The notes below the pieces were generated by a model that did no database searches, was not told the origin of the DNA, and worked only from the letters and a program-made list of their open reading frames with translations. Positions 6,432 to 61,465 of a DNA stretch of 64,000 nt are shown here, in pieces. Positions within the stretch are counted from its first letter, which is position 1, and each line of letters starts with the position of its first letter. This DNA comes from Psychrobacter arcticus 273-4. Lineage in GTDB: Bacteria > Pseudomonadota > Gammaproteobacteria > Pseudomonadales > Moraxellaceae. The stretch spans positions 930,001 to 994,000 of the forward strand of contig NC_007204.1 of the NCBI RefSeq assembly GCF_000012305.1, written 5' to 3'. Both the position numbers and the translations under genes were made by a program.

Positions 6432-6569
6432 TATAGTTGAAATACTTTAAAGTCGCTACCGTATTGCTGGTGTAAATTTTTTGCAGCCTCTGTCTGCGTA
6501 GGCACAGCAAGCAAGAAAAATTTGCACCAGTAGTACGTGTTGTATCGATATTACTTTTCACCGACTATA
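6432..6569 (+). repeat. 138-bp palindromic MITE-like repeat, copy 1
   Basis: Begins TATAGTTGAAATAC and ends CACCGACTATA. Seven near-identical copies occur in this window at exactly 138 bp. Imperfect inverted arms share TATAGT ends and the inner CTGGTGyAAATTTTT block, around a core containing CTGTCTGCGTAGGCACAG. This copy ends six bases before the comEC ribosome binding site (AAGGAG, 6576-6581), so it occupies the comEC promoter/leader region. Confidence 0.93.
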
Positions 6570-6586
6570 TCAAGCAAGGAGCGCTG

Positions 6587-9547
6587 GTGTATTGGTTAAT
6601 AGGTAGCTTTATCATCATTGCTATGATGGGCGTTTTGGCCGTTGCTGATAGTACGTCGATGCCAATCGTTTCACTATTTATGGATAGCGCTAGCACTCCT
6701 GTTCTGACTTTCTCGCTTGTGTTTCTTACCCTTATTTTGATGGTGGTTAGCCAGTTTAGTATACCGGCAGCTAATACTATCAACCCTGTAAAAAGTGTGT
6801 CTCATCACTCTACGTATGCTTGTCGCGTTCTCTCTTTCGTATTAATCGCTTTACTGGCAATTGCTCTGATTATCGGTAGTGGTCTACAAGCACTGATGAG
6901 TCACCAACAAGCAGACACTCAAAAAATAACTGAGCCTATGCGTATTCAGGCTTTGGTTCATATAGAGGGAATAAGCGATAGTGTGTATGATGCCGGTATT
7001 GATACGGGCTATCGGCAAGTTGCGACCATCAGTCAAATATCGCCATTGGTTTCTGAGCTGACAGCGCAAGACTTAGATAAAGTTGCAACGGAGTATTGGG
7101 CAGAAATAAATAATAGCCTAAGCAGTAATAATGTTAAATATGAATTTTCAAACTCTCAATCTTCACATCAAGACACACTAGCTGAAAGTGCTGTCCAAGG
7201 TAACGTATACCGCGTACTACTCAACGCTTATCCAAAAAAGCCAGCTAAACAGTCATCTAAGACTGGCTCTAAGAAAAAATCCGAAAAATCAGAAAAACAA
7301 AATCAGATTGCTGACTTAAATCATTTGCAGCCGGGTGATAGGTTATTTATGACCTTGACGCTTGCACCGCTTGCTACTTCTAAGCAAGCACTGAATAATC
7401 CATCAGGGTTTGATAGTTATCGCTGGTTACGTGGTCGGCATATTGATGGTGTTGCCAATATACTTGCTACCAGTAGCTCGATTTTGCCATCCAGTCATCC
7501 ACAGTCACATTCACTAGCTTCTGATTCTTATTTAACGCGTTTGCGTACTGCTATTGACAAAGGGCGTTGGCAGTTACGTCAGCACTTTTATCAAAATTGG
7601 GTAGCAAATACTGCTGCAGGGCAACAAGCAAAAGCGGTCACGTTAAGCTTGCTGACAGGCGATCGCAGTTTAGTTAATCGTGAAACCAAAGATTTATATC
7701 AGCTGGCTGGAATTTCACACTTATTGGCAATATCGGGTACGCATGTTTTGTTTTTAGCAATAGTGCTGGCTGGCATAGTCATACTATTCATTAATCGTCT
7801 GTATCCAGCCCTATATCGCTATATTCCGCGTTGGCACGTACGTTGGTGGCTGATGATTAGCGCCGCTTTTATCTATGCATTATTTACAGGGTTTGATGTG
7901 CCTGCTGCACGTACCGCATGGATGTTATTGGCAATCGGTCTAACAAGGCTGACTTTATTGCCCGTCAGTACCATGCGCATATTATTTGCCTTGGCAGTGT
8001 TGATGGCGTGGCATGATCCTTATGTATTATGGCAAGCAGGTTATTGGCTGTCCTTTATTGCCGTGGCGTTATTGCTTAAATATGAAGATACCTCACAAAA
8101 GCAGCCATTAGAATCAAACCAACCCTCTACTTCCCATCATAAATTACTCAGACATCTATGGCTAAACTTTAAGCGCTTATTTAAGTTGCAGTGTTGGCTA
8201 TTCCTCGCTCTACTGCCTGTGACTTTGTTGCTATTTGGCAAAGCATCATTATGGGGATTGGTCGTCAATCTCTTTGCCATTGGCTTATTTGGTTGGATTA
8301 TTGTACCGCTGAATTTATTGGCTGGGCTTTGCTATCTTATATTGCCGGCTATAGCCAATATTATTTGGACATTAGTCACTGCGATTGTAACTAACTTACA
8401 CGAACTAATATCATGGCTAACGGCAATGCCTGTGCTGTCAGATGCGTGGCTTTATACCCCTGTCAATGCTGCTATTTTGCTCATGGCATTATTAGCCATC
8501 TTACCTTGGTTGCTTCCCCGCGGTCTGATCAGCCGCTGGCTAGTATTACCACCGCTCAGCCTTTTGGTAATGACGGTATATGCCAATCAGCAGTCACTGA
8601 CTAAGACACCCACCTTATATATATTGCCAACCGGCGATCAATATATAAGTGCCACTTTATTACAGTATCCTGTTTTAAGTGACAAGGATGCCAAAAACAG
8701 TAGCTGGCTGTTCTTGACGGATCATAGACCAAGTAGCACCAAGACCACGCCCAGCAACCTGACGGCAGATAAATTCTCTGCCACATTAAAGCAGCAATTG
8801 GGTAGCTTAGCAGTCAATAAGCTAGAGGGCATCGTAGTACAAAGCAGTAGTAGTGGCGTGACTGATTCACGCGTTTATGATAAGACGAGCGGCGCAGTGA
8901 ACCCTAATGATTCAGAGATTTTACCCATGGTGGTCGCTCAGCTCAGTCAGCGATTGCCTGTGAGCCAATACTGGCAAGCAGGGCGTAGTGAGCGTTGGTC
9001 TGCGCTGCAGCAAGCTTATAAAATCACTACGGATTCTCAAAAGACTGCGACCATCAGTGCCCAACGCTGCGAATCCGGTAAAATATGGCAGCTGCCAAAT
9101 GGTCACTTAACGCTGCAAGCAATCACAGGCTGGAGCAAGATAGATGATGCCAGTGTTTGGGATTGTACAATTGCTATTGATAGCAGCAAACCTATAAGGG
9201 TGCTCAAGTATCAAGCAAACGATCCTCTCAAGTCATTACCCGTCACTTCACAAACACTCACGTCAAACAGCCAACAACCGATTGACCAAGCAAATACGTC
9301 GCAATCACGCCTAATTTTGAATGCAGATACGCATGAGCGAGCTTGGCAAATGTGGTCGTTGCTCTGCTCGGTTGAGTCAACCAATAGCAATATAACAATG
9401 AATCGTACGACATGGTTGGGTCACAGCACCTCGCATATATCGAGTGAGGTAATCAGCCAACAACAAATAGATGAGGTAACCACCTACGATAATAAACCGT
9501 TAGAAGTGGCTTTATCTTCTGATGCGCTAATCAGAGAGGGCGATTAA
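6587..9547 (+). CDS. comEC: DNA internalization-related competence protein ComEC/Rec2
   Basis: Inner-membrane channel that takes single-stranded DNA into the cytoplasm during natural transformation. 986 residues, longer than typical (about 750-800). Starts at GTG 6587 behind AAGGAG (5-base spacing). Order: three N-terminal hydrophobic segments, a DUF4131-like soluble domain (about 100-300, with a Lys/Ser-rich insert KKPAKQSSKTGSKKKSEKSE), then the Competence domain with LLTGDRSLVNRETKDLYQLAGISHLLAISGTH (about 355-387) and many helices to about residue 670. The C-terminal region aligns in position with the metallo-beta-lactamase-like domain, but I see no HxHxDH metal-binding motif. Bracketed by two inverted copies of the 138-bp repeat. 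Confidence 0.9.
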   Translation: MYWLIGSFIIIAMMGVLAVADSTSMPIVSLFMDSASTPVLTFSLVFLTLILMVVSQFSIPAANTINPVKSVSHHSTYACRVLSFVLIALLAIALIIGSGLQALMSHQQADTQKITEPMRIQALVHIEGISDSVYDAGIDTGYRQVATISQISPLVSELTAQDLDKVATEYWAEINNSLSSNNVKYEFSNSQSSHQDTLAESAVQGNVYRVLLNAYPKKPAKQSSKTGSKKKSEKSEKQNQIADLNHLQPGDRLFMTLTLAPLATSKQALNNPSGFDSYRWLRGRHIDGVANILATSSSILPSSHPQSHSLASDSYLTRLRTAIDKGRWQLRQHFYQNWVANTAAGQQAKAVTLSLLTGDRSLVNRETKDLYQLAGISHLLAISGTHVLFLAIVLAGIVILFINRLYPALYRYIPRWHVRWWLMISAAFIYALFTGFDVPAARTAWMLLAIGLTRLTLLPVSTMRILFALAVLMAWHDPYVLWQAGYWLSFIAVALLLKYEDTSQKQPLESNQPSTSHHKLLRHLWLNFKRLFKLQCWLFLALLPVTLLLFGKASLWGLVVNLFAIGLFGWIIVPLNLLAGLCYLILPAIANIIWTLVTAIVTNLHELISWLTAMPVLSDAWLYTPVNAAILLMALLAILPWLLPRGLISRWLVLPPLSLLVMTVYANQQSLTKTPTLYILPTGDQYISATLLQYPVLSDKDAKNSSWLFLTDHRPSSTKTTPSNLTADKFSATLKQQLGSLAVNKLEGIVVQSSSSGVTDSRVYDKTSGAVNPNDSEILPMVVAQLSQRLPVSQYWQAGRSERWSALQQAYKITTDSQKTATISAQRCESGKIWQLPNGHLTLQAITGWSKIDDASVWDCTIAIDSSKPIRVLKYQANDPLKSLPVTSQTLTSNSQQPIDQANTSQSRLILNADTHERAWQMWSLLCSVESTNSNITMNRTTWLGHSTSHISSEVISQQQIDEVTTYDNKPLEVALSSDALIREGD

Positions 9548-9608
9548 TAACTGCCCCAATATTAAATGTTAATAGTATTGTGGATAGTATTAATGCGCCC
9601 TAATATTT

Positions 9609-9746
9609 TATAGTCGGTGAAAAGTAATATCGATACAACACGTATTGCTGGTGCAAATTTTTCTTGCTTGCTGTGCCTACGCAGACAGAGGCTGCAAAAA
9701 ATTTACACCAGCAATACGGTAGCGACTTTAAAGTATTTCAACTATA
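9609..9746 (-). repeat. 138-bp palindromic MITE-like repeat, copy 2
   Basis: Opposite orientation to copy 1: starts TATAGTCGGTGAAAAG and ends TATTTCAACTATA. Lies 61 bases after the comEC stop, so copies 1 and 2 form a 3.3-kb inverted pair around comEC. A GTG-initiated 63-codon ORF inside is an artefact of the repeat. Confidence 0.93.
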
Positions 9747-9935
9747 TTTGTGATATCACATTTATAAAATATAGGTATTTCACAGAGACGCTATTGAACC
9801 ATGAGTAAAATGGCACCATACTTAATAACCTATTCATACAGAAAAATTAAACAGTAAGCATATCGAATTTTTCGGTAGTAAGTTTATATAATCTGTCTTT
9901 TATCGTTTTACATTGTTTCTGACTTAGGAAATTAT

Positions 9936-10991
9936 ATGCCCAACTGGCCGCCAGACCCTAACAAACGTCCTGATAATTCGGCAAATCAGCCAGCGCCGAT
10001 GCAGCAATCAAACCAGCCGAGCGGGCAAGAATGGCGACTGATTGAAAATACTTTATTAGCCAGCGTGGTTGAGCAACGCCGTGCCCGTCGCTGGAGTATC
10101 TTCTTTAAGCTATTGACCTTCGGCTATATTCTATTGATATTTTTGACGATTGGTCGTAGTTGCAGCACTGAAGCACCAACTGCTCTTGACGGTATCGACA
10201 CCAATAAGCCACATTTAGCAGTGGTTGAGATTCAAGGAACTATTAGCAGTGGTGATGTCGCCAACGCTTATGACGTCAATGATGCGCTAACACGCGCCTT
10301 TGAAAATAGTAACTCAAAGGCAGTAGCTCTAGATATCAACTCACCGGGTGGCTCGCCAGTACAGTCGGATGAAATCTGGCAAACCATGATGGATTTACGT
10401 AAACAATATCCGGATAAAAAGCTTTATGCGGTGATTGGCGATATGGGCGCTTCAGGCGCGTATTATATTGCATCAGCGGCTGATGAGATTTATGTCAACC
10501 CATCAAGCCTCGTTGGTTCGATTGGCGTTATTATGCCAAGCTACAATGTAAAAGGCTTAATGGATAAGGTTGGTGTAGAAGATCGCACCATTACGGCGGG
10601 TGAGTATAAAGATATCTTGAGTCTGTCACGTCCATTAACGGATTATGAAGAACAGCATGTCGAAAAAGTGTTGGACAATACTCATAAGCATTTTATCAAT
10701 GCTGTAAAAGAAGGTCGTGGTGATCGTCTAAAAAATCCTGAACAAAATAAGCTGTTTTCAGGACTATTTTGGACAGGAGAGCAATCTATTGAGCTTGGCT
10801 TGGCTGATAAGAAAGGCAGTATCTCAAGCTTAGAGAAGCAGCTTAAGCTAAATAACGTGGTCAATTATACGCCGAGTGATCCGTTCCAATTGTTTATGGA
10901 TCGCTTTGCCGTCAAATTGGGCGCAGGTGTGGGTTCAAGCATTAATCTTGATCTCTTGCCACAAGAAGAAGGCAACGCGCAGATGCGTTAA
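9936..10991 (+). CDS. sppA: signal peptide peptidase SppA (short form)
   Basis: Membrane-anchored serine protease that degrades released signal peptides; S49 family. 351 residues, the one-domain form. Pro/Asn/Gln-rich cytoplasmic N-terminus (1-50), one membrane helix (FFKLLTFGYILLIFLTIG, about 49-66), then the periplasmic protease domain with LDINSPGGSPVQSDEIW, the nucleophile Ser in DMGASGAYYIASAADEIY (about residue 173) and the general-base Lys in AGEYKDILS (about 225), the family's Ser-Lys dyad. AGGAAA precedes the ATG by 7 bases. Followed by a strong terminator. Confidence 0.92.
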   Translation: MPNWPPDPNKRPDNSANQPAPMQQSNQPSGQEWRLIENTLLASVVEQRRARRWSIFFKLLTFGYILLIFLTIGRSCSTEAPTALDGIDTNKPHLAVVEIQGTISSGDVANAYDVNDALTRAFENSNSKAVALDINSPGGSPVQSDEIWQTMMDLRKQYPDKKLYAVIGDMGASGAYYIASAADEIYVNPSSLVGSIGVIMPSYNVKGLMDKVGVEDRTITAGEYKDILSLSRPLTDYEEQHVEKVLDNTHKHFINAVKEGRGDRLKNPEQNKLFSGLFWTGEQSIELGLADKKGSISSLEKQLKLNNVVNYTPSDPFQLFMDRFAVKLGAGVGSSINLDLLPQEEGNAQMR

Positions 10992-11028
10992 TTGACTTTA
11001 ATTTTTAGAGTTACCGTGTATGATTGTT

Positions 11029-11062
11029 AAGGCTGAGCGTATGATTACGCTCAGCCTTATTT
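11029..11062 (+). terminator. Rho-independent terminator after sppA
   Basis: Perfect 13-bp stem AAGGCTGAGCGTA / TACGCTCAGCCTT (11029-11041, 11046-11058) with loop TGAT, then ATTTAT. Poor T-run but very stable stem, 38 bases after the stop. Confidence 0.75.
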
Positions 11063-11116
11063 ATATGTCGCTATTTAGCATTTAACACCATAAATACAAA
11101 CTAATGAGAATGTGTC

Positions 11117-12007
11117 ATGAGTGAAGTCAATTTGCAGTCTTTTGCGTCCTTACCTATATCGACAATAACCCAAAAACCCGTTATTCATTTTGCTCATGCC
11201 AACGGGATGCCGAGTCCTGTGTATGAGCCATTTTTTGAAAAGTTGGCTGAATTTTTCACCATTGAATATATCTCGATGCTTGGTGATACGCCTGATTATC
11301 CAGTCGATAACCAATGGCGCAGTCTCACGCAGCAGATTGTCAATAGCGTCAAAGATACCTGTAAAAAACATGGCGTTAAGCAAGTCATAGCCGTTGGGCA
11401 TTCGCTTGGCGCCATGTGTACATTGCAAGCGTTGTACCGTGCACCCGAGTACTTTTCGCAAGCAGTACTCATGGATCCACCATGGATTTATGGCAAAGTC
11501 AGCTTGCTATGGCATCTTGCCAAGACAGTAGACCGATTGCCACTGATGAATAATCGATTGATGGATAAGCTATCGCCAGCTGGCGTATCTAAGCATCGTC
11601 GTGACGTTTGGGACAGCCGAGAAGATGCGTATGATAAGCTACGACATAAAGGCTTTTTTAAAAACTTTACTGAGCGCAGTTTTCAAGGTTATATTGAGCA
11701 TGGTCTGCATAAGCGTGCCGATGGTAAAGTGACCTTGGCGATTCCAAAAGCCAGTGAAGTTGCCGTCTTTCGTACTAATCCTTCTTGGTATTGGTTGACC
11801 CCAAATCGTGCCCCTAAAGTGCCAGTTACCTTGATTATCGGTGAGGACAGTATATTTTTAAAACGTCGATTCCCCCAACAAATAAAGTCGCGCTTACGCA
11901 TTCCTTATATCACTCATGCGGGCGGTCATATGTTTCCACTTGAGCATCCAGAGTCTGTGTCTCAACAGGTATTAGCATTAATTGAAAAACAGTTATTTGC
12001 CAAATAA
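11117..12007 (+). CDS. alpha/beta hydrolase
   Basis: 296-residue cytoplasmic alpha/beta-hydrolase-fold enzyme. N-terminal strand with HFAHANGMPSPVYEPFFEKLA (oxyanion-side HANG motif), nucleophile elbow GHSLGA (Ser about 96), then the MDPPWIYG strand, and the catalytic His in THAGGHMFPLEHPE near the C-terminus; an acid in LIIGEDSIFLKRRF. The HANGxxxxxY start is typical of a gammaproteobacterial hydrolase subfamily of unknown substrate. Weak GAG upstream of the ATG. Stands between the sppA terminator and the CPBP gene, 99 bases ahead. Confidence 0.85.
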   Translation: MSEVNLQSFASLPISTITQKPVIHFAHANGMPSPVYEPFFEKLAEFFTIEYISMLGDTPDYPVDNQWRSLTQQIVNSVKDTCKKHGVKQVIAVGHSLGAMCTLQALYRAPEYFSQAVLMDPPWIYGKVSLLWHLAKTVDRLPLMNNRLMDKLSPAGVSKHRRDVWDSREDAYDKLRHKGFFKNFTERSFQGYIEHGLHKRADGKVTLAIPKASEVAVFRTNPSWYWLTPNRAPKVPVTLIIGEDSIFLKRRFPQQIKSRLRIPYITHAGGHMFPLEHPESVSQQVLALIEKQLFAK

Positions 12008-12106
12008 TGACAGTCTTTGTTTTCAATCAATTTTCTGACGCTAAACAGACTGTCCTTTTGAGCAGTTTTTAAGCAATGCTTTAGTACCGTTTCGAGTGAA
12101 CCTATT

Positions 12107-12904
12107 ATGTCAATGCGAATGCCAAATAAGCGCGCCGCTGAAAACAATACAGTTGTCATATCCTCTCAGCCTTTATTCACACGCTTAGGTACTTTGCTGC
12201 TTATTGTAGGCATGGTGGTTGTTTTTTTTATCAGTCAATTGATTGGGATTTACATCGCCGGCAAACTGATATTACCAACTGCCGAAAGCGCAACGGTAGG
12301 CGATATTTTCTTTTTTGGCAGCAATGATGGGACGGTTGTCAGTATTTCTATCATGATAGGCTGCGTGCTATTAGTGGCAATCAGTTCGTTAATTATTCGC
12401 ATGAGAGGGGGCAATTTAAAGCAGTATTTAGCATTAACACCGTTCTCATTGGCGGTTGGTATGGGCATGATAGGGCTGCTGTTGATATTTATGATTGGCA
12501 GTCAGGCATTGACGTATTTGCTTGATAAATCACCGCTGGCGTTTGTAGACCCTTTATATCAGTCTGTCAGCTCAGTATGGTTACTTGTTTTTGCGATGGT
12601 CATCGTCGCGCCCATTTATGAAGAGCTCATATTTCGAGGTATATTGTGGTCGGCGCTTGCAGAGCAATTTGCTGCGTCATCTGATACAGAGTATCGCGGG
12701 GCAATCGTAGCAAGTCTGGTGACCAGTTTAATATTTGCGGTCATTCATTTGCAATATGGTATTTATGAGATCAGTACCATCGTGGTGCTGGCATTGATAT
12801 TTTGCTATGCGCGTATCAAATCAGGCTCGCTGATATTGCCCATGCTATTACATATTATAAATAACGGCGCGGCTATGTGGCAGTATCTGGTGCAAGTGGC
12901 GTAG
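12107..12904 (+). CDS. CPBP family intramembrane glutamic endopeptidase
   Basis: 265-residue polytopic membrane protein with the CAAX-protease/bacteriocin-processing (Abi/CPBP) motifs: motif 1 EELIFRG (EExxxR, about residue 171) in a helix, motif 2 FAVIHLQYG (FxxxH), and motif 3 LPMLLHIINN (HxxxN). About six to eight hydrophobic segments. The family cleaves prenylated or other substrates within the membrane; substrate here is unknown. The ATG at 12107 is followed by two further in-frame ATGs at 12113 and 12119; ribosome binding sites are weak for all. Convergent with dusA. Confidence 0.88.
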   Translation: MSMRMPNKRAAENNTVVISSQPLFTRLGTLLLIVGMVVVFFISQLIGIYIAGKLILPTAESATVGDIFFFGSNDGTVVSISIMIGCVLLVAISSLIIRMRGGNLKQYLALTPFSLAVGMGMIGLLLIFMIGSQALTYLLDKSPLAFVDPLYQSVSSVWLLVFAMVIVAPIYEELIFRGILWSALAEQFAASSDTEYRGAIVASLVTSLIFAVIHLQYGIYEISTIVVLALIFCYARIKSGSLILPMLLHIINNGAAMWQYLVQVA

Positions 12905-12972
12905 GAGGTAACAGTGAATATTTACGCCGTATTCACTGTTATTTAATAATAGGTTTTATCAGGGCTAAGAAG

Positions 12973-14047: not shown

Positions 14048-14185
14048 TATCGTTGAAATACTTTAAAGTCGCTACCGTATTGCTGGTGTAAATTTTTTGC
14101 AGCCTCTATCTGCGTAGGCACAGCAAGCAAGAAAAATTTGTACCAGTAGTACGTGTTGTATCGATATTACTTTTCACCGACTCTA
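14048..14185 (+). repeat. 138-bp palindromic MITE-like repeat, copy 3
   Basis: Same orientation as copy 1 but with both ends mutated: TATCGTTG at the left and CCGACTCTA at the right, plus CTATCTG for CTGTCTG in the core. Length is still 138. Lies between dusA and the MFS gene. The end mutations suggest an older insertion. Confidence 0.9.
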
Positions 14186-14231
14186 TAATCAATAGGCTGA
14201 TAAAAGATCAGCCTATTTGGATAAAAGATCA

Positions 14232-21791: not shown

Positions 21792-21929
21792 TATAGTCGG
21801 TGAAAAGTAATATCGATACAACACGTACTACTGGTGCAAATTTTTCTTGCTTGCTGTGCCTACGCAGACAGAGGCTGCAAAAAATTTACACCAGCAATAC
21901 GGTAGCGACTTTAAAGTATTTCAACGATA
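21792..21929 (-). repeat. 138-bp palindromic MITE-like repeat, copy 4
   Basis: Orientation of copy 2. Starts TATAGTCGG, ends TTTCAACGATA, the same terminal variant seen (reverse-complemented) at the left end of copy 3. Sits between convergent rnd and gcvP. Confidence 0.92.
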
Positions 21930-26526: not shown

Positions 26527-27699
26527 CTATGAGTCAAACTGCTGCTTGCCATTGCGGACAAAAGGTAGCTTAAGTACGCGCACATCGACGAATTTGCCTT
26601 TACCGCGCAAATCTACTTGTACATTGTCTTCAGCTGACACGCTGTCAGGAACACGAGCGATAGCGATTGAATTTTTTAGACTAGGGGAGAATGTGCCACT
26701 GGTAATGATACCAGTTTGCTCATTGTCGGTGCCTTGATTGATGGTGACGCTCATACCTTCACGTAACACACCACGTGTGGTTAGCAATAAGCCCACTTGC
26801 TTCATAGCGGTATTGTCATCTTTTGACTGCTTGCGTTTGCTGACCATAGCTTTGCGACCAACAAAGTCACGCTCGTCTTTTAGCGCCAATGTCCAGCCCA
26901 TGTTGCATTCATAAGGGCTGACATCTTCATTCATGTCATGACCATAAAGGTTCATACCCGCTTCCATACGCAAGGTATCACGAGCGCCAAGACCGGCAGG
27001 CTTTATGCCATTGGCTTTTAATTGCTCAAAGAACGCCGGCGCATCATCGCCATGCATAATGACTTCAACGCCATCTTCACCAGTGTAGCCAGTACGAGCG
27101 ACGAACCAATCTTTGCCTTCGATATCGGTTAAGTCAGCACCGACAAAAGGTTTTAGCGCCGCTAAGGTATCAGCCCAACTGGGTTTAATTTTTGCCAATT
27201 TTTCAACGGCATTAGGTCCTTGAACGGCAAGCATAGCAAGGTCTGTACGCTCAGTTAAGGTAACATCAAAGTCTTTCGCTACTTTTTCAAACTGTGCCAT
27301 ATCTTTATCACGCGTTCCGGCATTTGATACGATACGGTATTCAGTTTCTTCGCTATTCGATAAATAAACGATTAAGTCATCGATAATGCCGCCTTCTTCA
27401 TTCAACATAGGTGAATAAAGAGCTTTACCAATTGTTTTGAGTTTATCGACGTCATTAGCCAATAGTTTTTGTAGCCATGCTTTGGCATCCAAGCCTTTAA
27501 TATCGACAATAACCATGTGAGAGACATCAAACATACCGGCGTCGGTACGCACCGCTTCATGCTCTTCGATTTGTGAGCCATAATGAATCGGCAGCTCCCA
27601 GCCAGAAAAGTCCACCAGCTTTCCATCACTATCGACATGAGACTGATAAAGGGGCGTGCGTTGAGGGGCTTGGCTGTTGGTATTTTGAGTATCGGTCAT
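26527..27699 (-). CDS. gcvT: glycine cleavage system T protein (aminomethyltransferase)
   Basis: Transfers the methylene carbon from GcvH to tetrahydrofolate, releasing ammonia. 390 residues. [49 protein letters not shown], the [21 protein letters not shown] region, and [35 protein letters not shown] carry the folate-site residues. AAGGA precedes the ATG by 7 bases. First gene after the glycine riboswitch. The dihydrolipoamide dehydrogenase is not in this window. Confidence 0.96.
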
Positions 27700-27873
27700 A
27701 ACAAATCCTTAAATGTACATCAAAGGTACTTAATAAAAGTAACCAGCTGATGCGCATGATCATAGTAGCGAGAAGCAATATTGCAGGGTGCAAGTATTGC
27801 AACCAAGGGTGGTACAGAAAAAATATAAAGCAATGCACCAAACAAACGCTAAACGTCGATTTGGGTAAAAGCC

Positions 27874-28188
27874 CTATCTGTCCTGTAACCTGAGATTTTC
27901 AACACGATATTATTGTCTTTTTTAACAAGCCTATAATATCGCGTTTTCTCCCCTTCGGTGGATAAGGCGTCGTCCGTCCTTACCGCTCTCCAGATTTGTT
28001 ATGCCTAAGGTTTAGAGCGCAATACGCTTAGCAGCGCGATACAAATAAACCATGGTGACATGTGTTTTTCAGTCCTTTTACCTGAGCGATTAGCAGGGTG
28101 GATGCGCCTTCGGTGGTCATATAGCGGCTGTCAGCTCATTAATATGAGTATCACTAACTTTAGGCTAAAGACTCTCTCCTGAAAAACG
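27874..28188 (-). promoter_or_regulatory. tandem glycine riboswitch upstream of gcvT
   Basis: Two glycine aptamers in series on the minus strand. Aptamer 1 (28188 to about 28062): P1 stem GTTTTTCAG/CTGAAAAAC, GGAGAG, CACCGAAGG, and CTCAGGTAAAAGGAC. Aptamer 2 (27997 to 27874): P1 stem ATCTG/CAGAT, GGAGAG, CACCGAAGGGG, and TCTCAGGTTACAGGAC. A linker of roughly 64 bases separates them. These are the conserved glycine-aptamer cores. About 175 bases lie between the second aptamer and the gcvT ATG, enough for an expression platform, though I see no certain terminator there. Glycine would be expected to switch gcv expression on. Confidence 0.93.
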
Positions 28189-28573
28189 CTTTTATTATGA
28201 AAGGTTCTCATCTTTTTTACAACCCATCAGATGGATTAAAGTGAATAATCTTAGCTATAACGATTTTTTATGAGGGTAATGCCGTAAAAAACAGCAAGAT
28301 AAAATGATGATGTTTCTATAAAATTGCACTATATTAATAGCAGATAAGACGGACACATTAATGATAAAAATTTAAAGATATAAAATTTATCGGTGAGCTT
28401 CATGCCTTATAGTACAAAGGATGCAAGATATTTGTATCAAGTGCTCCTTACTTTCTCTCAAGCCAACTGGCGAGAGTGTTTAAGATACTTTACTATATCT
28501 GAACGTAAAGCCACTACTGATAATTGCCTGAAATATGCTAATCTATGACGATAGTTTCTGATAGGTTGTTTTT

Positions 28574-29849: not shown

Positions 29850-29987
29850 TATAGTTGAAATACTTTAAAGTCGCTACAGTACTACTGGTGTAAATTTTTT
29901 GCAGCCTCTGTCTGCGTAGGCACAGCAAGCAAGAAAAATTTGCACCAGTAGTGGGTGTTGTATCGATATTACTTTTCACCGACTATA
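29850..29987 (+). repeat. 138-bp palindromic MITE-like repeat, copy 5
   Basis: Orientation of copy 1. Variant bases: CGCTACAGTACTACTGG on the left arm and GTAGTGGGTGTTG on the right arm. The left arm carries the CTACTGG that other copies have only in the right arm, as if one arm had been converted by the other. Lies upstream of the MoxR gene. Confidence 0.92.
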
Positions 29988-37521: not shown

Positions 37522-37667
37522 TATAGTCGATTCCAAATAAAGTAGATACATCATGTTTTGACGCGGCACTGGTATAAATTTTTCTGGCGTGCTGTGCCTG
37601 CGCAGACAGAGGCTGCAAAAAATTCATTCCAGTCCCGCTGTATCGTTTTTATACTGGGCTTACTATA
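37522..37667 (-). repeat. divergent 146-bp member of the MITE-like repeat family
   Basis: Same TATAGTCG start and ACTATA end, and the same core (TGCTGTGCCT.CGCAGACAGAGGCTGCAAAAAATT), but the two outer arms differ almost entirely from the 138-bp copies. 42 bases before the gabD ATG. A separate subfamily of the same element. Confidence 0.8.
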
Positions 37668-52023: not shown

Positions 52024-52161
52024 TATAGTTGAAATACTTTAAAATCGCTACCGTATTGCTGGTGTAAATTTTTTGCAGCCTCTGTCTGCGTAGGCACAGC
52101 AAGCAAGAAAAATTTGCACCAGTAGTACGTGTTGTATTGATATTACTTTTCACCGACTATA
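52024..52161 (+). repeat. 138-bp palindromic MITE-like repeat, copy 6
   Basis: Orientation of copy 1, with AAAATCGC for AAAGTCGC and GTATTGATAT for GTATCGATAT. Lies in a divergent promoter region between the PAP2 and YrdA-like genes. Confidence 0.93.
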
Positions 52162-53726: not shown

Positions 53727-54822
53727 ATGGAAATCAATCCGTATCAAGAACGAATTAAAGACTTATCTGAGCGTGGGCAGGACTTGCGGAGGTATCTTTG
53801 ACTTCGATGGTAAGCAAGAACGCTTAGAAGAAGTCAATTTAGAGCTGGAAAATCCTGAGCTATGGAATGATCCAGAACGCGCGACCAAGATTAATAAAGA
53901 AAAAAGTCAGCTTGATGGGGTGATTGATGTGGTGGTGTCGCTTGAAACCACATTGGAAGATGCGTCTGCGATGCTAGAGCTTGCAGTAGAAGAAGAAGAC
54001 GAGTCATTGCTTGCTGATGTGCAAGCCGAATTAGACAACGCTGAAAAACGCGTGGCAGATTTAGAGTTCCGCCGCATGTTTAGCGGTGAGATGGATCCGA
54101 ATAATTGCTATTTGGATATCCAGTCAGGTAGTGGCGGTACAGAGGCACAAGATTGGGCAGAGATGTTGCTGCGTATGTATACGCGTTGGGCAGAAGCACA
54201 TGGTTTTAAAGTAGACGTTATCGAAGTGTCTGCTGGCGGAGTCGCTGGTATCAAGTCAGCAACCATTGAGATTAAAGGCGATTATGCTTTTGGTTGGTTA
54301 CGTACCGAAATCGGCGTGCATCGCTTAGTACGTAAATCACCATTTGACAGTAATAACGGTCGTCATACTTCATTTGCGGCTGTTTTTGTGTCGCCTGAAA
54401 TTGATGATAATATCGAGATTGATGTCAATCCGGCAGATTTGCGTATTGATACTTATCGCTCATCGGGGGCTGGTGGTCAGCACGTAAACACCACCGATTC
54501 TGCTGTGCGTATCACTCATGAACCGAGTGGCGTGGTGGTGACTTGTCAAAACGAGCGCAGCCAGCATGGCAATAAAGCCACGGCAATGAAAATGCTGCGT
54601 GCTAAGCTATATGAGCTTGAAATGCAAAAACGGATGGAATCCCAGCAAGCCGTTGAAGATGGTAAGTCGGATGTTGGCTGGGGCAGTCAAATTCGCTCGT
54701 ATGTCCTTGATGACTCACGTATCAAGGACTTACGTACTGGCGTTGAAACCTTTAACACTGGTGCGGTGCTCGATGGCGACCTTGATCAATTTATCGAAGC
54801 GAGTCTAAAAGCGGGTCTGTAA
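53727..54822 (+). CDS. prfB: peptide chain release factor 2 (programmed +1 frameshift)
   Basis: RF2 terminates translation at UGA and UAA. Encoded as 53727-53798 plus 53800-54822, about 364 residues. The first 24 codons ([24 protein letters not shown]) run into an in-frame TGA at 53799-53801. The sequence GGAGG-TAT-CTT-TGA-C is the classical RF2 autoregulatory slippery site: low RF2 lets the ribosome shift at CTT and continue GAC TTC GAT GGT. The main part has codon-recognition tripeptide SPF ([16 protein letters not shown]) and the peptidyl-transferase GGQ motif ([18 protein letters not shown]). The usual downstream lysS is not here. Confidence 0.97.
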
Positions 54823-54891
54823 AGCCAGACTATAAAATTAGACTATAAACACAATTTTAAAATATCAACCAACACTTAATTAAGGAAAATT

Positions 54892-55176
54892 ATGCCAAGC
54901 GTTAATAATTATTTTGATAATAAAGTAACTTCTATTGCCTTTCAAACGGCAACCAAGCCTGCTACTGTTGGGGTAATGGAGATTGGTGACTATGAATTTG
55001 GCACCAGCGAATTTGAGACTATGACAGTCGTTAGCGGTGCTTTGACGGTCAAGTTGCCAGAGAGTGATGAATGGCAGACCTTTAATGCTGGCGCGCAATT
55101 TACTGTTGACGCCAATCAGAAATTTCAAGTAAAAGTAGAAGTCGAAACGGCTTATCTATGCACTTACGGTGAATAG
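54892..55176 (+). CDS. ppnP: pyrimidine/purine nucleoside phosphorylase (DUF1255)
   Basis: 94-residue cupin-fold enzyme cleaving diverse nucleosides to base plus ribose-1-phosphate. Whole length matches YaiE/Ppn[97 protein letters not shown] precedes the ATG by 7 bases. Followed by an IS3 transposase remnant. Confidence 0.94.
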
Positions 55177-55226
55177 TTTTTTAGCTTACGTTAATCTAAG
55201 AATTATAAAAACGCCAAGCATTTAAG

Positions 55227-55412
55227 TGAACTGACCCCCAAATTTTGGACGGTTTACGTTTATTTCAAGGACTGAGTTCTGTACGGTACAGGACTCAGTC
55301 CTTTTAGTTTAAGCTGAATACGTTCATGATGGTAGTAATGAATATACTCATGAATCTGTCTCTCGAAAGCTTCAATCGTTTTAGGCTTCTCAATAGTGCT
55401 GATATCAATGAT
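55227..55412 (-). mobile_element. IS3-family transposase remnant (3' end only)
   Basis: Minus strand reads EKPKTIEAFERQIHEYIHYY, then HHERIQLKLKGLSPVPYRTQ, then SLK-stop (stop 55260-55262): the C-terminus of an IS3-family OrfB integrase. Just outside is an end-like sequence TGAACTGACCCCCAAA (from 55227). The 5' part of the transposase and the other end are missing; the coding frame disappears around 55412. Confidence 0.88.
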
Positions 55413-55431
55413 TATCTGCGCAGGCTACCAT

Positions 55432-55467
55432 AAATGAGCAGTCAGTCAAAAATGAGCCGTCAGTCAA
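55432..55467. repeat. 18-bp tandem duplication
   Basis: AAATGAGCAGTCAGTCAA followed by AAATGAGCCGTCAGTCAA, one mismatch, between the IS3 remnant and the acyl-CoA synthetase gene. The 190 bases beyond it, up to 55661, are AT-rich without identifiable signal. Confidence 0.8.
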
Positions 55468-55661
55468 ATTTTCATTAAAGTTCTTTATCTATAAAAATGA
55501 TACGTTATGTATTGAAATAAATATAAAAATGCGTTACTAATAGAGCATATACCATTTAATAGGTTTAAACAGTTAATAGAATATGATTGTTTTACGATTT
55601 ATTTTATTATTTCTAACTCTCTGATTTTGTCAGTGATTCTCAATTGCTAAAGGATTAGCTT

Positions 55662-57371
55662 ATGAATACCTTCTCTCAAGAAACTTCATCTACAGAAACT
55701 GCAGTGAATACCGTCAATACAATAACGAGCTACAGTGATTATTATCATAATTTTGATATCAATACATTATTGACAGAAATATTTGGCGAGCATTTAGATG
55801 ATCGTTTGAATGCTTATATGGCGTGTTGCGGTCGTCATGTACGTGATGGTCGCGGTGACAATATCGCACTGGTACATGAAGATATGGCGGGCCATGTGAC
55901 TCGTATGAGTTTTGCTGAACTGGATAAGGCAAGTGCGCAGGTTGCCAGCTTATTACTTTCTTATGGCGTGCAAGCAGGTGACCAAGTGGCGACTATGCTG
56001 CCGCGCACGCCTGAATTACTAACCATTGTATTAGCCACTTGGCGGATTGGCGCAGTATATCAACCGCTGTTTACCGCTTTTGGTTATGATTCGATTAAGT
56101 ATCGGATGGACAAAGCCAATACTAAAGTTGTTTTTACCAATCAAGAAAATCGTGGCAAGTTTGACGACTTGGCCAAACAAAGCAAGATGGTATTGGTTGG
56201 CAGCAAGGTAGATGCGCAAAGTTGGGGTGATGATAATTATGCTGAAAGGATATCAAAGCAGCCGCAAACGATAGAACCAGTATTACTGAATACCGATGCG
56301 CCCTTTTTACAGATGTTTACCTCGGGCACGGTGGGCAAATCAAAAGGCGTTAGCGTGCCACTAAGTGCACTCTCAGCTTTTTATCTATATATGCGTTATG
56401 CGATTGACTTGCGCGCAGATGATAACTATTGGAATATGGCAGATCCAGGTTGGGCGTACGGTCTTTACTATGCAATTACAGGACCTTTATTATTAGGGGT
56501 GACGACGTATTTTAATGAAGCTGGGTTTGATGCGGAAAATACTCGTGACTTTATGGTACGTCATAAGATTAGTAATTTGGCATCCTCGCCGACGGCATTT
56601 CGCATGATGAAATCGAGTGGCGTGTTTGAAAGTGCTCACAATGACCCAGAGGCTAAATTATCACTGCGCTGTGCCAATTCAGCAGGTGAGACCTTAAATA
56701 CCGAAGTGGTCAATTGGGTTGAAAACTATTTGAACTGCAAAGTTTGTGATCAGTATGGGCAGACGGAAACAGGGATGACGTGTTGCGAGCACCATGCTTT
56801 AGATCATGAGTGCCCAGTTGGCTCGATGGGTATGGCACTACCGGGGCATACACTTGTGGTGTTAGATGATGATATGAAGGTACTCGCTGATGGTGAACAA
56901 GGGCAGCTGGCAGTGGTAGTCAGCCAATCGCCAGCATTTTATTTCCGTGGTTATAACTGGAATGAGAAAGATGCATTCGTGAATGATTATTATCTAACAG
57001 GCGATGTGGTTGAGCGTCATAGCGATGGCAGTTATTGGTTCTCTGGGCGTGATGATGACATTATTATTACGTCAGGCTACCGAGTAGGTCCTACCGATGT
57101 CGAAAATACCGTGCTTGAACATGAAGCCGTCGCAGAGTCGGCTGCTGTCGGTGTACCTGATGAAGTGCGTGGTCATACCATCAAGTCTTATGTGGTACTA
57201 AAAGACGGTATCGAAGGGACGGCAGAGATTGCCAAGGAAATTCAAGACTTGGTACGCAGACGTCTCTCGACGCATGCTTATCCACGTGAAGTTGAGTTTG
57301 TGACAGCACTACCAAAGACCCCAAGTGGTAAGATTCAGCGTTTTTTGTTGCGTAGTTTATCGGCAGCATAA
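55662..57371 (+). CDS. AMP-binding acyl-CoA synthetase
   Basis: 569 residues. ANL superfamily: phosphate-binding loop MFTSGTVGKSKGVSVP, NMADPGWAYGLYYAITGPLLLGV, DQYGQTETGMTCCEHHAL, LTGDVVERHSDGSYWFSGRDDDIIITSGYRVGPTDVEN (hinge Asp and Arg), and the adenylation Lys in PKTPSGKIQRFLL (about residue 557). Resembles medium-chain/acetyl-propionyl type synthetases of betaproteobacteria and Moraxellaceae; chain-length preference unknown. AAAGGA before the ATG. Co-oriented with the SDR gene 67 bases downstream, suggesting a short fatty-acid activation and oxidation unit. Confidence 0.9.
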   Translation: MNTFSQETSSTETAVNTVNTITSYSDYYHNFDINTLLTEIFGEHLDDRLNAYMACCGRHVRDGRGDNIALVHEDMAGHVTRMSFAELDKASAQVASLLLSYGVQAGDQVATMLPRTPELLTIVLATWRIGAVYQPLFTAFGYDSIKYRMDKANTKVVFTNQENRGKFDDLAKQSKMVLVGSKVDAQSWGDDNYAERISKQPQTIEPVLLNTDAPFLQMFTSGTVGKSKGVSVPLSALSAFYLYMRYAIDLRADDNYWNMADPGWAYGLYYAITGPLLLGVTTYFNEAGFDAENTRDFMVRHKISNLASSPTAFRMMKSSGVFESAHNDPEAKLSLRCANSAGETLNTEVVNWVENYLNCKVCDQYGQTETGMTCCEHHALDHECPVGSMGMALPGHTLVVLDDDMKVLADGEQGQLAVVVSQSPAFYFRGYNWNEKDAFVNDYYLTGDVVERHSDGSYWFSGRDDDIIITSGYRVGPTDVENTVLEHEAVAESAAVGVPDEVRGHTIKSYVVLKDGIEGTAEIAKEIQDLVRRRLSTHAYPREVEFVTALPKTPSGKIQRFLLRSLSAA

Positions 57372-57438
57372 ATGAATCGAAGTGTTAATAAGACAATAAA
57401 ATAGACAGTTTATAAAAATATTAATTAAAGGAAAGATT

Positions 57439-58218
57439 ATGAAAATTGAACAACACAGCTTTTTGGTTACGGGCGGTGCGTCAGGTCTAGGTGAGTCAGT
57501 GGCTCGCGCTATCGTGGCTCAAGGTGGTAAGGTTGTCATTGCTGACCTTAACGAGTCAACGGGGCAAGCATTGGTAGACGAGCTGGGTGACAATGCTCGT
57601 TTTGTACGCTGTGATGTGACCAGTGGCGATGAAGTGCAAGTGGCGGTTGATATCGCTGAAAAGGCGTTTGGTGGTCTGCAAGGGTCGATAAATTGTGCTG
57701 GTATCGTTGTTGTACAAAAATTGTTAGATCGTGAAAATAATCCTGCAGATCTCGATGCCTTTAGTCGTGGCGTGAACATTAACCTCGTTGGTTCTTTTAA
57801 CGTGGCACGTTTGGTGGCGGCTAGTATTGCTAAGCGCGTGGCAGCTAGTACGCCAGCCGAAGTCAATGCTGACAACGGAATTATCATCAATACGGCTTCT
57901 ATCGCCGCTTTTGATGGGCAAGTCGGACAAGCCAGTTATGCCTCATCTAAAGCTGGAGTCGTTGGCATGATGTTGCCGCTAGCCCGTGAGCTGACTCGTC
58001 ATGGTATCCGTGTGATGACTGTAGCGCCAGGGGTATTTGCAACGCCTATGATGCAAAGTCTGCCTGAAAAGGCCCGTGAGCAGCTAGAGGCTGCGGTACC
58101 TTATCCTAAGCGTTTGGGCAACCCAAATGAGTTTGCCAAATTGGTCATGCATATCATTGATAATGCCTATCTTAATGGTGAAGTGATTCGTTTAGATGGC
58201 GCGATTCGTATGGTGTAA
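57439..58218 (+). CDS. SDR family oxidoreductase, 3-hydroxyacyl-CoA dehydrogenase type-2-like
   Basis: 259 residues. Rossmann TGGASGLGESVARAI (TGxxxGxG), Asp-rich VIADLNE indicating NAD preference, NCAGIVVVQKLL, catalytic Ser in IINTASIAAFDGQ and Tyr167-Lys171 in ASYASSKAG. The C-terminus VAPGVFATPMMQSLPEKAREQLEAAVPYPKRLGNPNEFAKLVMHII...GEVIRLDGAIRM is that of HSD10-like type II 3-hydroxyacyl-CoA dehydrogenases, fitting the acyl-CoA synthetase upstream. AAAGGA lies before the ATG. Confidence 0.9.
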   Translation: MKIEQHSFLVTGGASGLGESVARAIVAQGGKVVIADLNESTGQALVDELGDNARFVRCDVTSGDEVQVAVDIAEKAFGGLQGSINCAGIVVVQKLLDRENNPADLDAFSRGVNINLVGSFNVARLVAASIAKRVAASTPAEVNADNGIIINTASIAAFDGQVGQASYASSKAGVVGMMLPLARELTRHGIRVMTVAPGVFATPMMQSLPEKAREQLEAAVPYPKRLGNPNEFAKLVMHIIDNAYLNGEVIRLDGAIRMV

Positions 58219-58603
58219 TAAGGTATTAAAGATTTAATATCGTAGCTTTAAGTATTATTCCTATAACTCGTACAATACTTGGCATGGTTTTTTGCTATCT
58301 TATAGATGATAATTTTATTTATTAATGATAAGAAGCAATGCCATGCTGTTTTTTTGTGCAAATCTTAAATAAGCAGTATCCGCAGACGCATTTTTTTGAA
58401 AATTGAATGAATTATATATTGAGTGTGAGCGCGATGTAGTAACTACATTTAAAGTAATCAATATCATTACTATTAATAAGGTTTTAACGGTAAATAGGTT
58501 GAAATCTACCTCTATATACCGCATATATAAAGGTAGAGGAAGGCAAGCAAACAGCATAAGTTTGCTGCCTGATAATATATACGAATGATAAAAGGATGCT
58601 TAT
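58219..58603. other. intergenic region upstream of clpB
   Basis: 385 bases with no credible gene. A 15-base palindrome ATGTAGT-A-ACTACAT lies at 58434-58448. I looked for a sigma-32 heat-shock promoter (CTTGAAA, then CCCCAT) and did not see one close to consensus. Confidence 0.4.
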
Positions 58604-61201
58604 ATGAGATTTGAAAAGTTTACTCAAAAACTGCAATCTGCGATACAAGAGGCACAAAGTCTGGCGTTAGGGCGTGACCATACCGGTATTGATCCGGTGC
58701 ACCTGCTTGCAGTCTTGCTGCAAGATGAGTCTAACTTGTCTATCTGCCAACAAGCAGGCGCGTCTATTCCTGCGTTAAAAAATGGCGTGGCAAAGGCATT
58801 AGATAACCAAGCAACGATTTCGGAGCCGACAGGTGATGTCAATCTTAATCCAAACTCGGTTAAGATTTTGAATTTGGCAGATCGCCAAGCGCAAAAAGAA
58901 GGCGATGATTTTATCGCGACTGAATGGGTGATGTTGGCACTTGCTGAGCAAGGCGATACCAAAAAAATATTTGAAAGTGCTGGCGTTACAGCCAATAAAT
59001 TAAAAGCGGTGATTGAGCAATTGCGCGGCGATGATACTGTGAATAATCAAAATGCAGAAGATCAGCGTGATGCCCTTAATAAATACACCATTAACTTAAC
59101 TGAGCAAGCAGAGCTTGGTAAGCTTGATCCGGTGATTGGTCGTGACGAAGAGATTCGACGTACTATCCAAGTGTTGTCACGCCGTACCAAAAACAATCCT
59201 GTGCTCATCGGTGAGCCAGGTGTTGGTAAAACGGCTATTGTAGAAGGCTTGGCACAAAAAATCATCAATGGTGATGTACCAGAAGGTTTACGTCGTAAAG
59301 AAGTGCTGTCGTTGGACTTAGGTGCTTTGATTGCTGGTGCAAAATTCCGTGGTGAGTTTGAAGAGCGTCTCAAAGCGGTACTCAGTGACTTATCGAAGCA
59401 AGAAGGTAACGTTATCTTATTTATCGATGAGCTACATACGCTAGTTGGGGCAGGTAAGGCGGATGGTGCGATGGACGCCGGTAATATGCTAAAACCAGCG
59501 CTTGCACGTGGTGAGCTGCATTGCGTCGGTGCGACTACTTTAGATGAATATCGTAAGTATATTGAAAAAGATGCGGCGCTTGAGCGTCGTTTCCAAAAAG
59601 TATTGGTTGATGAGCCGACGGTTGAAGATACCATTGCGATTTTACGTGGACTAAAAGAGCGTTATGAGCTGCATCATGGGGTCGATATCCAAGACAGCGC
59701 CATCATTGCGGCTGCTCGTATGAGTCATCGTTATATCACTGATCGCAAGCTGCCGGATAAAGCCATTGACTTGATTGATGAAGCTGCGAGTCGCTTACGT
59801 ATGGAGATGGACAGCAAACCTGAGTCACTAGGTAAGCTCGATAGTCGTTTGATACAGCTAAAAATGCAGCGTGAAGTGCTCAAAAATGAAGAAGACGCGG
59901 GCGCGCAAGCAGAGCGTAAAGTGCTTGATGCACAAATTGAAGAGCTGGAAAAAGAGTACGCCGATCTTAACGAGATTTGGCAAGCAGAAAAAGCTTTGGT
60001 TAAAGGCAGTCAGCAGTTAAAAGACGAGCTGGACAAAGCCCGTATTGCTTATGATAAAGCCAGCCGCGAAGGCGATTATGAGACCATGAGCAAGCTGCAG
60101 TATGAGACGATACCGCAGTTAGAGCGCCGTATCCATGAATCTGATTTGGCAGAGCAAAAAGAGCAGACTGGTGAAAATAGTGGTGTAAAACTGCTGCGTA
60201 ACAAAGTCACGGACAATGAAATCGCCGAAGTCGTTGCTGCAGCGACGGGTATTCCAGTTAGTAAAATGCTGCAAGGCGAACGTGACAAGATGCTGGCGAT
60301 GGAAGAAAACCTCCATGAGCGCGTCATCGGTCAAGATGAAGCGGTCGAAGCAGTAGCCAATGCAGTACGCCGTAGCCGTGCTGGCTTGTCTGATCCAAAC
60401 CGTCCTTCAGGCTCGTTCTTGTTTTTAGGGCCTACGGGTGTCGGTAAAACAGAGCTGACCAAATCGTTGGCGAACTTCTTGTTTGATTCAGAAGATGCTA
60501 TCGTCCGTATCGATATGAGTGAGTACATGGAGAAGCATAGCGTCAGCCGTTTGGTGGGCGCGCCTCCAGGTTATGTGGGCTATGAAGAAGGTGGTGCTTT
60601 GACGGAGGCGGTACGCCGTAAGCCTTATAGTGTGATTTTGTTTGATGAAGTTGAAAAAGCGCATCCTGATGTGTTTAATATCTTGCTACAAGTATTGGAC
60701 GATGGTCGCTTGACGGATTCACAAGGTCGCGTGGTAGACTTCAAAAACACCGTCATTATTATGACCAGTAACTTGGGTTCGCACAAAATCCAAGAAATGG
60801 TTGGCGAGAGCTATGAAGATATCAAAGCTGAGGTGATGGATTCGGTTGGACAGCATTTCCGCCCAGAGTTTGTCAACCGTATCGATGAGATCGTGGTATT
60901 CCATCCGCTAGGTATGTCACAGATGGCTGGTATTGCTGCGATTCAGTTGAACCGCTTGCGTCAGCGTCTATATGAGCGTGAGTTGGATATCGAGTTATCG
61001 GCAGATGCGATGAACAAACTGGTTGCAGTTGGCTATGATCCTGTTTATGGTGCGCGTCCACTTAAACGTGCGATCCAACAAGAGATTGAAAACCCATTAT
61101 CATTGAAATTGCTGGCAGGTGATTTTGTCGCTGGTGATATCATCAAAGTCGATGTCGGTGCTGATGACAAACTGACCTTTGATAAGCTTAGAATGAGCTA
61201 A
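58604..61201 (+). CDS. clpB: ATP-dependent chaperone ClpB
   Basis: Hexameric disaggregase working with DnaK. 865 residues. N-domain ([34 protein letters not shown], 1-145), first AAA+ with Walker A GEPGVGKT (about 203-210), [28 protein letters not shown] and the Arg-finger region, the M-domain coiled coil (about 410-520), second AAA+ with GPTGVGKT (about 609-616), [28 protein letters not shown] and [17 protein letters not shown]-terminus [23 protein letters not shown]. Full length for the family. AAAAGGA before the ATG. Confidence 0.97.
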
Positions 61202-61237
61202 TAATTATTGCTGGTTCTAATTGTTATGAGTTCAATC

Positions 61238-61287
61238 AAACCCCTTATTTGCCTATTTTTTTATACAGGCAAGTAAGGGGTTTTTGT
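61238..61287 (+). terminator. Rho-independent terminator after clpB
   Basis: Long stem AAACCCCTTA-TTTGCCT / AGGCAAG-TAAGGGGTTT (61238-61254, 61267-61283) with one T-G pair, 12-base loop, and a T-run. Confidence 0.92.
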
Positions 61288-61327
61288 CTTGTGCTCTACT
61301 ATTCTTCTAATGTCTCAATGTTTTTGC

Positions 61328-61465
61328 TATAGTCGGTGAAAAGTAATATCGATACAACACGTACTGCTGGTGCAAATTTTTCTTGCTTGCTGTGCCTACG
61401 CAGACAGAGGCTGCAAAAAATTTACACCAGCAATACGGTAGCGACTTTAAAGTATTTCAACTATA
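61328..61465 (-). repeat. 138-bp palindromic MITE-like repeat, copy 7
   Basis: Orientation of copy 2; starts TATAGTCGG and ends TTCAACTATA. Lies between the clpB terminator and the decayed sugar-dehydrogenase gene. Confidence 0.93.

What the first reader, a model, noticed from the sequence alone, without database searches (positions are those of the whole stretch)
6432..61465. Dispersed 138-bp MITE-like family with TATAGT ends, seven near-identical copies in 64 kb
Copies at 6432-6569, 9609-9746, 14048-14185, 21792-21929, 29850-29987, 52024-52161 and 61328-61465 are all exactly 138 bp and differ by a few bases. Ends are TATAGTtG and CgACTATA with variants. The arms are imperfect inverted repeats sharing CTGGTGyAAATTTTT, and the core contains CTGTCTGCGTAGGCACAG. 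All are intergenic and both orientations occur. Established parallel: Neisseria Correia elements also begin TATAGTGG and duplicate TA. Inference: a TA-targeting, non-autonomous element, perhaps moved by an IS630/mariner-type transposase, active recently.
Basis: partly seen in the sequence, partly recalled or inferred. Interest (0 to 1): 0.85.

Follow-up and report, generated by a model that had tools for sequence, protein, structure and literature searches.

The report
Jumping element with conserved RNA core
A 138-base element without genes sits at TA sites in an estimated 330 copies in one bacterial genome, likely moved by IS630-type transposases, and carries a hairpin whose pairing is conserved across the genus and favours one strand, so the hairpin likely works as RNA.

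Summary
In detail: seven 138-bp copies lie at the stated places, 0-5 substitutions from consensus; 864 kb of this genome gives 109 near-full copies, about 334 (275-403) genome-wide. Five of eight sites have a readable empty site in a relative, the cleanest with a single TA: a 134-bp element that duplicated TA. Ends follow the layout of the genus's IS630-type insertion sequences, but none with the same ends was found and only IS630 fragments remain here. The MITE reading is supported; the transposase is inferred.

Stem changes compensate. On one strand G-U pairs outnumber A-C 97 to 25, against 85 to 93 in the arms as control. Copies carry fewer private mutations in the core. The core is probably selected as RNA. 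Its task is unknown; orientation to neighbouring genes shows no bias.

The parts
6432..6569 (+). 138-bp element copy 1 (TA + 134 bp + TA)
   Evidence: empty site with single TA in G071
9609..9746 (-). 138-bp element copy 2
14048..14185 (+). 138-bp element copy 3 (ends TATC.. / ..TCTA)
   Evidence: near-clean empty site in G071
21792..21929 (-). 138-bp element copy 4
29850..29987 (+). 138-bp element copy 5
   Evidence: base-exact empty site with single TA in G071
52024..52161 (+). 138-bp element copy 6
   Evidence: empty site of fitting length in G056
61328..61465 (-). 138-bp element copy 7
37522..37667 (-). second-family element, 146 bp: TATAGT ends, different arms, same hairpin core
   Evidence: G071 empty there (against the flanks)
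6459..6541 (+). conserved hairpin core of copy 1 (model R1)
   Evidence: 96.5 bits
9637..9719 (-). hairpin core of copy 2
   Evidence: 99.2 bits
14075..14157 (+). hairpin core of copy 3
   Evidence: 91 bits
21820..21902 (-). hairpin core of copy 4
   Evidence: 96.5 bits
29877..29959 (+). hairpin core of copy 5
   Evidence: 95.6 bits
52051..52133 (+). hairpin core of copy 6
   Evidence: 96.5 bits
61356..61438 (-). hairpin core of copy 7
   Evidence: 98 bits
37558..37640 (-). hairpin core of the second-family element
   Evidence: 88.3 bits

Best explanation
This is a high-copy MITE: a 134-bp non-coding element that inserted at TA and duplicated it, is likely moved in trans by IS630-type transposases, and carries a genus-wide hairpin core that likely acts as RNA. 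Shown: the TA duplication at empty sites, the copy density, an end layout like that of IS630-type elements of the genus, the compensated stem and the well conserved internal loop of the core. Inferred: an IS630-type transposase, now lost from or not found in this genome, recognised the roughly 28-bp ends and spread copies; selection against damage then left them between genes, most of all between convergent genes. Inferred, and the least certain step: where a copy is transcribed in its + sense, the transcript folds into a stem of about 21 pairs with a fixed internal loop, which a host RNA-binding protein or an RNase III-like enzyme recognises, so that the insertion becomes a processing or protection signal that the host tolerates or uses. 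This would explain why the centre is conserved better than the arms between it and the terminal TATAGT.
For: Copies and number. TA duplication: (6432 and 29850 base-exact against G071; 14048 against G071 and 52024 against G056 nearly so; 37522 against G071's flanks). IS630 link: elements mostly 889-920 bp with HTH_Tnp_IS630 and DDE_3 products whose 30-bp ends follow the same pattern; over 93 elements the arms match the nearest IS end at 20.7 and 21.5 of 28 on average, against 16.0 for 247 other TATAGT sites. Core: 96 of 105 genus genomes, 1 of 243 others; 90.8% of cells paired against 84.5% shuffled, 92 double-change cells against 27 (0 of 500 shuffles), 8-26 in slid controls; pairwise identity of arm positions 7 to 27/28 0.49-0.63, of the loop words 0.84-0.88 and of the pairs around the loop 0.88-0.94. 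Strand sense: G-U 97, A-C 25 in 47 families; 36 families against 4, 7 ties; bootstrap ratio 1.9-9.5; 19 pair columns against 2, p = 0.0002; control on the arms 85 against 93; + strand folds better in 38 of 47. Present copies: private mutations 12 in 78 core sites, 30 in 60 arm and end sites, p = 0.0003.
Against: No insertion sequence with the same ends was found (105 genomes, exact pattern of one arm with a filter that alone would miss more than half; only fragments here). For the 138-bp family itself the arms are only modestly IS630-like: 20 and 21 of 28 to the nearest IS end, where 5% of other TATAGT sites reach 21; with a profile of IS ends 32 and 27 of 489 other sites score as high (some of those are themselves element ends). 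The terminal six bases are as conserved (0.87-0.88) as the core. No orientation preference relative to neighbouring genes, 23 against 19. No promoter-like or terminator-like site around copy 1. On the first 48-core alignment the wobble excess is 87 to 30 cells but only 14 to 7 columns, p = 0.19. Shared variants within the genome are frequent in the stem, 13 in 44 sites. An old copy shared by G071 and G056 has a decayed core. DNA folding energies favour the same strand, so a strand-specific single-stranded DNA form is not excluded. The 47 families share ancestry and a few of their ends are doubtful.
Confidence: 0.55

Rival explanations
1. An ordinary IS630-dependent MITE whose core is conserved only because all families descend from a recent common ancestor; the palindrome is kept up by hairpin-templated repair of DNA, not by RNA selection.
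For: The within-genome variants at positions 33/35 and 100/102 are mostly changes of G-U pairs to Watson-Crick pairs, by a change on either side, as templated correction would give. An old copy has decayed.
Against: The arms, which the transposase should read, are more diverged than the internal loop, and loop bases that are not palindromic are well conserved. Repair has no reason to spare G-U and avoid A-C on one strand only, and the arms show no such bias.
Confidence: 0.22
2. The core is a DNA-level aid to transposition: an extruded or single-stranded hairpin, or a host-factor site, that brings the ends together.
For: In 864 kb of this genome end pairs with the core are 107, without it 3 (lowest threshold). 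DNA parameters also favour the + strand.
Against: In 408 kb of relatives the same scan gives 8 with and 4 without, among them 107-108-bp coreless elements. A duplex DNA role cannot tell the strands apart; no bias to replication direction, 54 of 116. No good IHF-like site, best has 2 mismatches.
Confidence: 0.16
3. A REP/BIME-like extragenic palindrome moved by a RAYT-type enzyme.
For: High copy number, intergenic, palindromic.
Against: TA duplication and terminal repeats; 83 of 93 full elements are 137-149 bp with defined ends. RAYT genes were not searched for.
Confidence: 0.02

Closest known systems
RUP (repeat unit of pneumococcus), proposed to be moved by IS630-Spn1
   Same: 107 bp, 108 copies, TA at the target, ends like those of an IS630-type element (PMC2229807 and PMC3049150, passages seen).
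   Different: Here the ends match IS630 elements of the genus in layout only; about three times the copies by estimate; many arm families share one hairpin core across a genus. No sequence comparison with RUP was made.
Correia / NEMIS elements of Neisseria
   Same: Small, TA termini, high copy, hairpin transcripts; RNase III cutting of transcripts is reported (PMC10969869, PMC2229807, passages).
   Different: 107/155-bp forms with an IHF site in the long one; no good IHF-like site here. Kinship by sequence not tested.
BOX elements of pneumococcus
   Same: Modular repeat with a predicted RNA fold and IS-like ends (PMC3049150, passages).
   Different: BOX is built of boxA/B/C modules with variable boxB number; here one core with differing arms.
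MITEAba12 of Acinetobacter and one Moraxella
   Same: MITE of the same bacterial family (family placement recalled), 111-114 bp (PMC6382973, passages).
   Different: 16-bp GGCTTTGTTGCACAAA-type ends, 9-bp duplication, ISAba12 as partner, 90 copies in all genomes surveyed there. The word Psychrobacter does not occur in its main text.

Membership tests
MITE (non-autonomous DNA transposon) | short, no transposase gene | tested here: met
   138 bp, no room for a gene
MITE (non-autonomous DNA transposon) | terminal inverted repeats | tested here: met
   TATAGT ends; 17 of 30 end bases match, so imperfect
MITE (non-autonomous DNA transposon) | target-site duplication on insertion | tested here: met
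   TA at empty sites, 5 of 8 sites readable
MITE (non-autonomous DNA transposon) | autonomous partner with the same ends | tested here: inconclusive
   same layout, best 38 of 56 end bases for this family; none with the same ends found; only fragments in this genome
IS630/Tc1-mariner-dependent elements | insertion into TA with TA duplicated | tested here: met
IS630/Tc1-mariner-dependent elements | ends like those of an IS630-type element | tested here: inconclusive
   layout shared; by profile 32 and 27 of 489 other TATAGT sites score as high as the two arms
IS630/Tc1-mariner-dependent elements | moved by an IS630-type transposase | not testable with these tools
   needs a mobility assay
Correia / NEMIS | IHF site in the long form | tested here: not met
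   best IHF-like match has 2 mismatches (consensus recalled)
Correia / NEMIS | sequence kinship to the Neisseria element | not tested
   no Neisseria element was fetched
REP/BIME with RAYT | no target duplication (recalled) | tested here: not met
   TA duplication present
REP/BIME with RAYT | linked RAYT gene | not tested
   no search made
a described RNA family (Rfam 15) | match at gathering score | tested here: not met
   none over the elements; only matches far below gathering score, to hairpin families

The most novel reading that the evidence does not exclude
The hairpin core is a functional RNA module, better conserved than the arms that carry it: IS630-type transposition has sown one protein- or RNase-recognised RNA signal into hundreds of intergenic places in species after species of the genus, making a transposon-borne post-transcriptional network, with arms replaced as transposases come and go.
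Probability: 0.22. Interest if true: 0.85.

Novelty: new variant of a known kind. Interest (0 to 1): 0.55.

Why it matters
MITEs are usually defined by their ends, with a filler in between. Here the filler is strongly conserved while the arms vary, with a one-strand signature of RNA selection and an internal control (the arms) that lacks it. That makes the question whether bacterial MITEs carry selected RNA function directly testable, in a genus with sequenced strains and hundreds of copies per genome.

Tried and rejected
A single-copy ancestral host RNA gene as source of the core: 26 genomes with few hits were searched again; the 30 loci printed mostly show TATAGT-type ends beside the core, some shared between genomes with their flanks, and not one locus common to all.

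A shared origin of the stem with the transposase gene: an 11-bp word of this family's stem occurs in 10 of 32 IS630 elements (9 of 2000 shuffles reach this) at the codons for Trp-Cys-Lys (site found in 10 of 32 elements by its regular expression). The core variants of most other families read otherwise there, and the codons are conserved for the protein; dropped as coincidence, not excluded.

Cognate IS by end pattern: four hits in 105 genomes; two are the same old MITE in G071 and G056, one a MITE that lost its core, one a lone end.

Plasmids and phages: no match to the 138-bp element; IMG/VR: no exact match to a core pattern. A first motif search for the core in weak loci was too loose and picked wrong places; replaced.

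Replication-strand bias: none, 54 of 116, a set enriched for identical copies. Empty sites at 9609, 21792 and 61328 were not readable; at 37522 my first borders were wrong and the site was read by holding one search's flanks against one search's sequence; G056 holds a different element near there. Most intergenic stretches of the twelve relatives were too diverged to read.

Rows dropped before counts: 46 of 53 distinct non-own cores went into the alignment, with two of the window; 31 of 124 core places lacked a recognisable end on one side; 93 were reduced to 47 by arm identity over 85%; arm identities used 35 and 44 of the 47; 8 of 109 near-full copies were not exactly 138 bp or ran off a stretch, and 2 of 101 had over 12 differences; 2 of 76 copies lacked a flanking gene. 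The core-against-arm test was suggested, whose copies it partly repeats. The genus and family scans used stricter filters that lose weak matches.

Papers: seven searches, listings and abstracts seen; passages read from PMC12306157, PMC6382973, PMC10969869, PMC3049150 and PMC2229807. Nothing seen there describes this element. PMC12306157 gives P. arcticus as one row of a table of REP counts. ISfinder and the P. arcticus genome paper were not consulted, so an entry there cannot be excluded.

Full report
Observation. A blastn scan of the window finds an eighth, related element: a core match at 37568-37632, which lies in a 146-bp element with TATAGT ends at 37522-37667. The window is 930001-994000 of a single 2,650,701-bp contig. 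Exact matches to a core pattern in the named genome collection gave 20 stretches, all Psychrobacter.

Number. In 464 kb sampled evenly there are 55 near-full copies, 1.6% of that sequence; in 864 kb there are 109, which gives about 334 for the genome, 275-403 by Poisson limits. Of 99 copies of exactly 138 bp, 13 equal the consensus and the mean is 2.2 differences. Of 76 copies examined for context, 74 had predicted genes on both sides: none inside a gene, 69 intergenic, 5 overlapping an ORF edge; 20 between convergent genes, 12 between divergent ones, 42 between tandem ones, while the bases of gaps of 40 or more are 12%, 31% and 57%.

Insertion. Flanks were compared with three relatives, G071, G056 and G004. 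At 6432 and 29850 G071 has both flanks joined by a single TA where this genome has TA-134 bp-TA. At 14048 (G071) and 52024 (G056) the empty site fits with small differences. At 37522 the flanks match G071's printed sequence around one TA, with differences farther out. The other three of eight sites could not be read. The base before the TATA end is A or C in 89 of 99 copies and the base after it G or T in 72 of 99, a weak palindromic target.

Partner. DDE_3 (IS630-type) matches occur in 48 of 60 genus genomes. Elements there are mostly 889-920 bp; the one examined has an HTH_Tnp_IS630 product and a DDE_3 product. Their ends begin TATAGT and carry TAAAA near positions 17-21 and a conserved A at 27. 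Over 93 elements the MITE arms match the nearest IS end at 20.7 and 21.5 of 28 on average, against 16.0 for 247 other TATAGT sites of this genome. For the 138-bp family the arms reach 20 and 21, together 38 of 56 with one IS; by a profile of IS ends 32 and 27 of 489 other TATAGT sites score as high, so the likeness is real in layout and modest in sequence. This genome keeps four clear IS630 fragments and one marginal one, none whole. The cognate transposase is inferred.

The core. In relatives the match often stops within the arms, and reading those places showed elements with other arms and the same centre. An alignment of 48 distinct cores supports one hairpin: 90.8% of cells paired (84.5% shuffled); 15 pairs with double changes (2 of 500 shuffles reach this); 92 such cells against 27 shuffled, none of 500 reaching it, and 8 to 26 when the partner is slid. 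The structure was drawn from these sequences, which favours it over slid versions. A covariance model finds 96 of 105 genomes of the genus and 97 of 348 of the family, 1 outside the genus.

Arms against core. From 124 core places, 93 had both ends and fell into 47 arm-distinct families, a few with doubtful ends; 83 of the 93 are 137-149 bp. The terminal six bases agree at 0.87-0.88, arm positions beyond them at 0.49 to 0.63, the outer stem at 0.64-0.66, the loop words at 0.84-0.88, the pairs around the loop at 0.88-0.94. Recurrent words are AGCCTCTG and ACAGCAAGC.

One strand. Orientation was set by the loop words, not by the stem. In the 47 families the stem has 97 G-U or U-G cells and 25 A-C or C-A cells; 36 families have more G-U, 4 more A-C, 7 tie; resampling families and columns gives a ratio of 1.9 to 9.5; 19 columns lean to G-U and 2 to A-C, p = 0.0002. 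On the earlier 48-core alignment the cells are 87 to 30 but the columns 14 to 7, p = 0.19. The arms of the same elements show 85 and 93. A G-U pair on one strand is A-C on the other, so this points to the + strand RNA, or to single-stranded DNA of that strand, whose energies lean the same way. The + strand RNA folds better in 38 of 47. Copies show no preference for the leading strand, 54 of 116.

Within this genome, variants seen in one copy only fall 30 times in 60 arm and end sites and 12 times in 78 core sites (p = 0.0003; leaving out the six terminal bases on each side 20 in 48 against 12 in 78, p = 0.006). Variants shared by copies fall 12 times in arms and ends and 15 times in the core, 13 of them in the stem. 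This suggests constraint on present copies, but the counts are small and the test was prompted; an old copy shared by G071 and G056 is decayed in the core.

Against a local role: co-directional and counter-directional copies in tandem gene pairs are 23 and 19; around copy 1 there is no promoter-like or terminator-like site by simple scan. The stem of about 21 pairs resembles RNase III substrates such as NEMIS (PMC10969869, passages), but recognition is not shown. Coreless elements with similar ends occur: 3 end pairs against 107 with the core in this genome, 4 against 8 in 408 kb of relatives.

Verdict. A MITE of the IS630-dependent kind, comparable with RUP, in a genus for which nothing seen in seven paper searches describes it, with an unusually conserved core that is probably selected as RNA. 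Membership as MITE is met on ends, size and TA duplication; the partner is not identified.

Noticed in passing
window 27868-28191, - strand: Two glycine riboswitch aptamers in tandem (Rfam RF00504, 56.4 and 41.4 bits) upstream of the - strand ORF 26527-27699.
   Followed up: no
L060:15697-15804, L118:6771-6878, L120:5514-5621, L120:7561-7667: A second class of 107-108-bp elements with the same TATAGT-type ends but a different centre, in which words such as AAGCGAG recur in three of four.
   Followed up: partly
L126, L155, L159: Core-bearing elements lie beside the ends of IS630-type insertion sequences (3 of 32 spans checked), as expected if the terminal TA serves as a target.
   Followed up: partly
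L209, L210, L211, L212, L213: Nearly the same MITE with the same near flanks in five genomes; in G051 it lies on the second of two contigs, the first being 3.13 Mb: perhaps a shared plasmid or other carrier.
   Followed up: no
L058:11910-11981: A 138-bp-family element reduced to its two arms (72 bp), core deleted.
   Followed up: no
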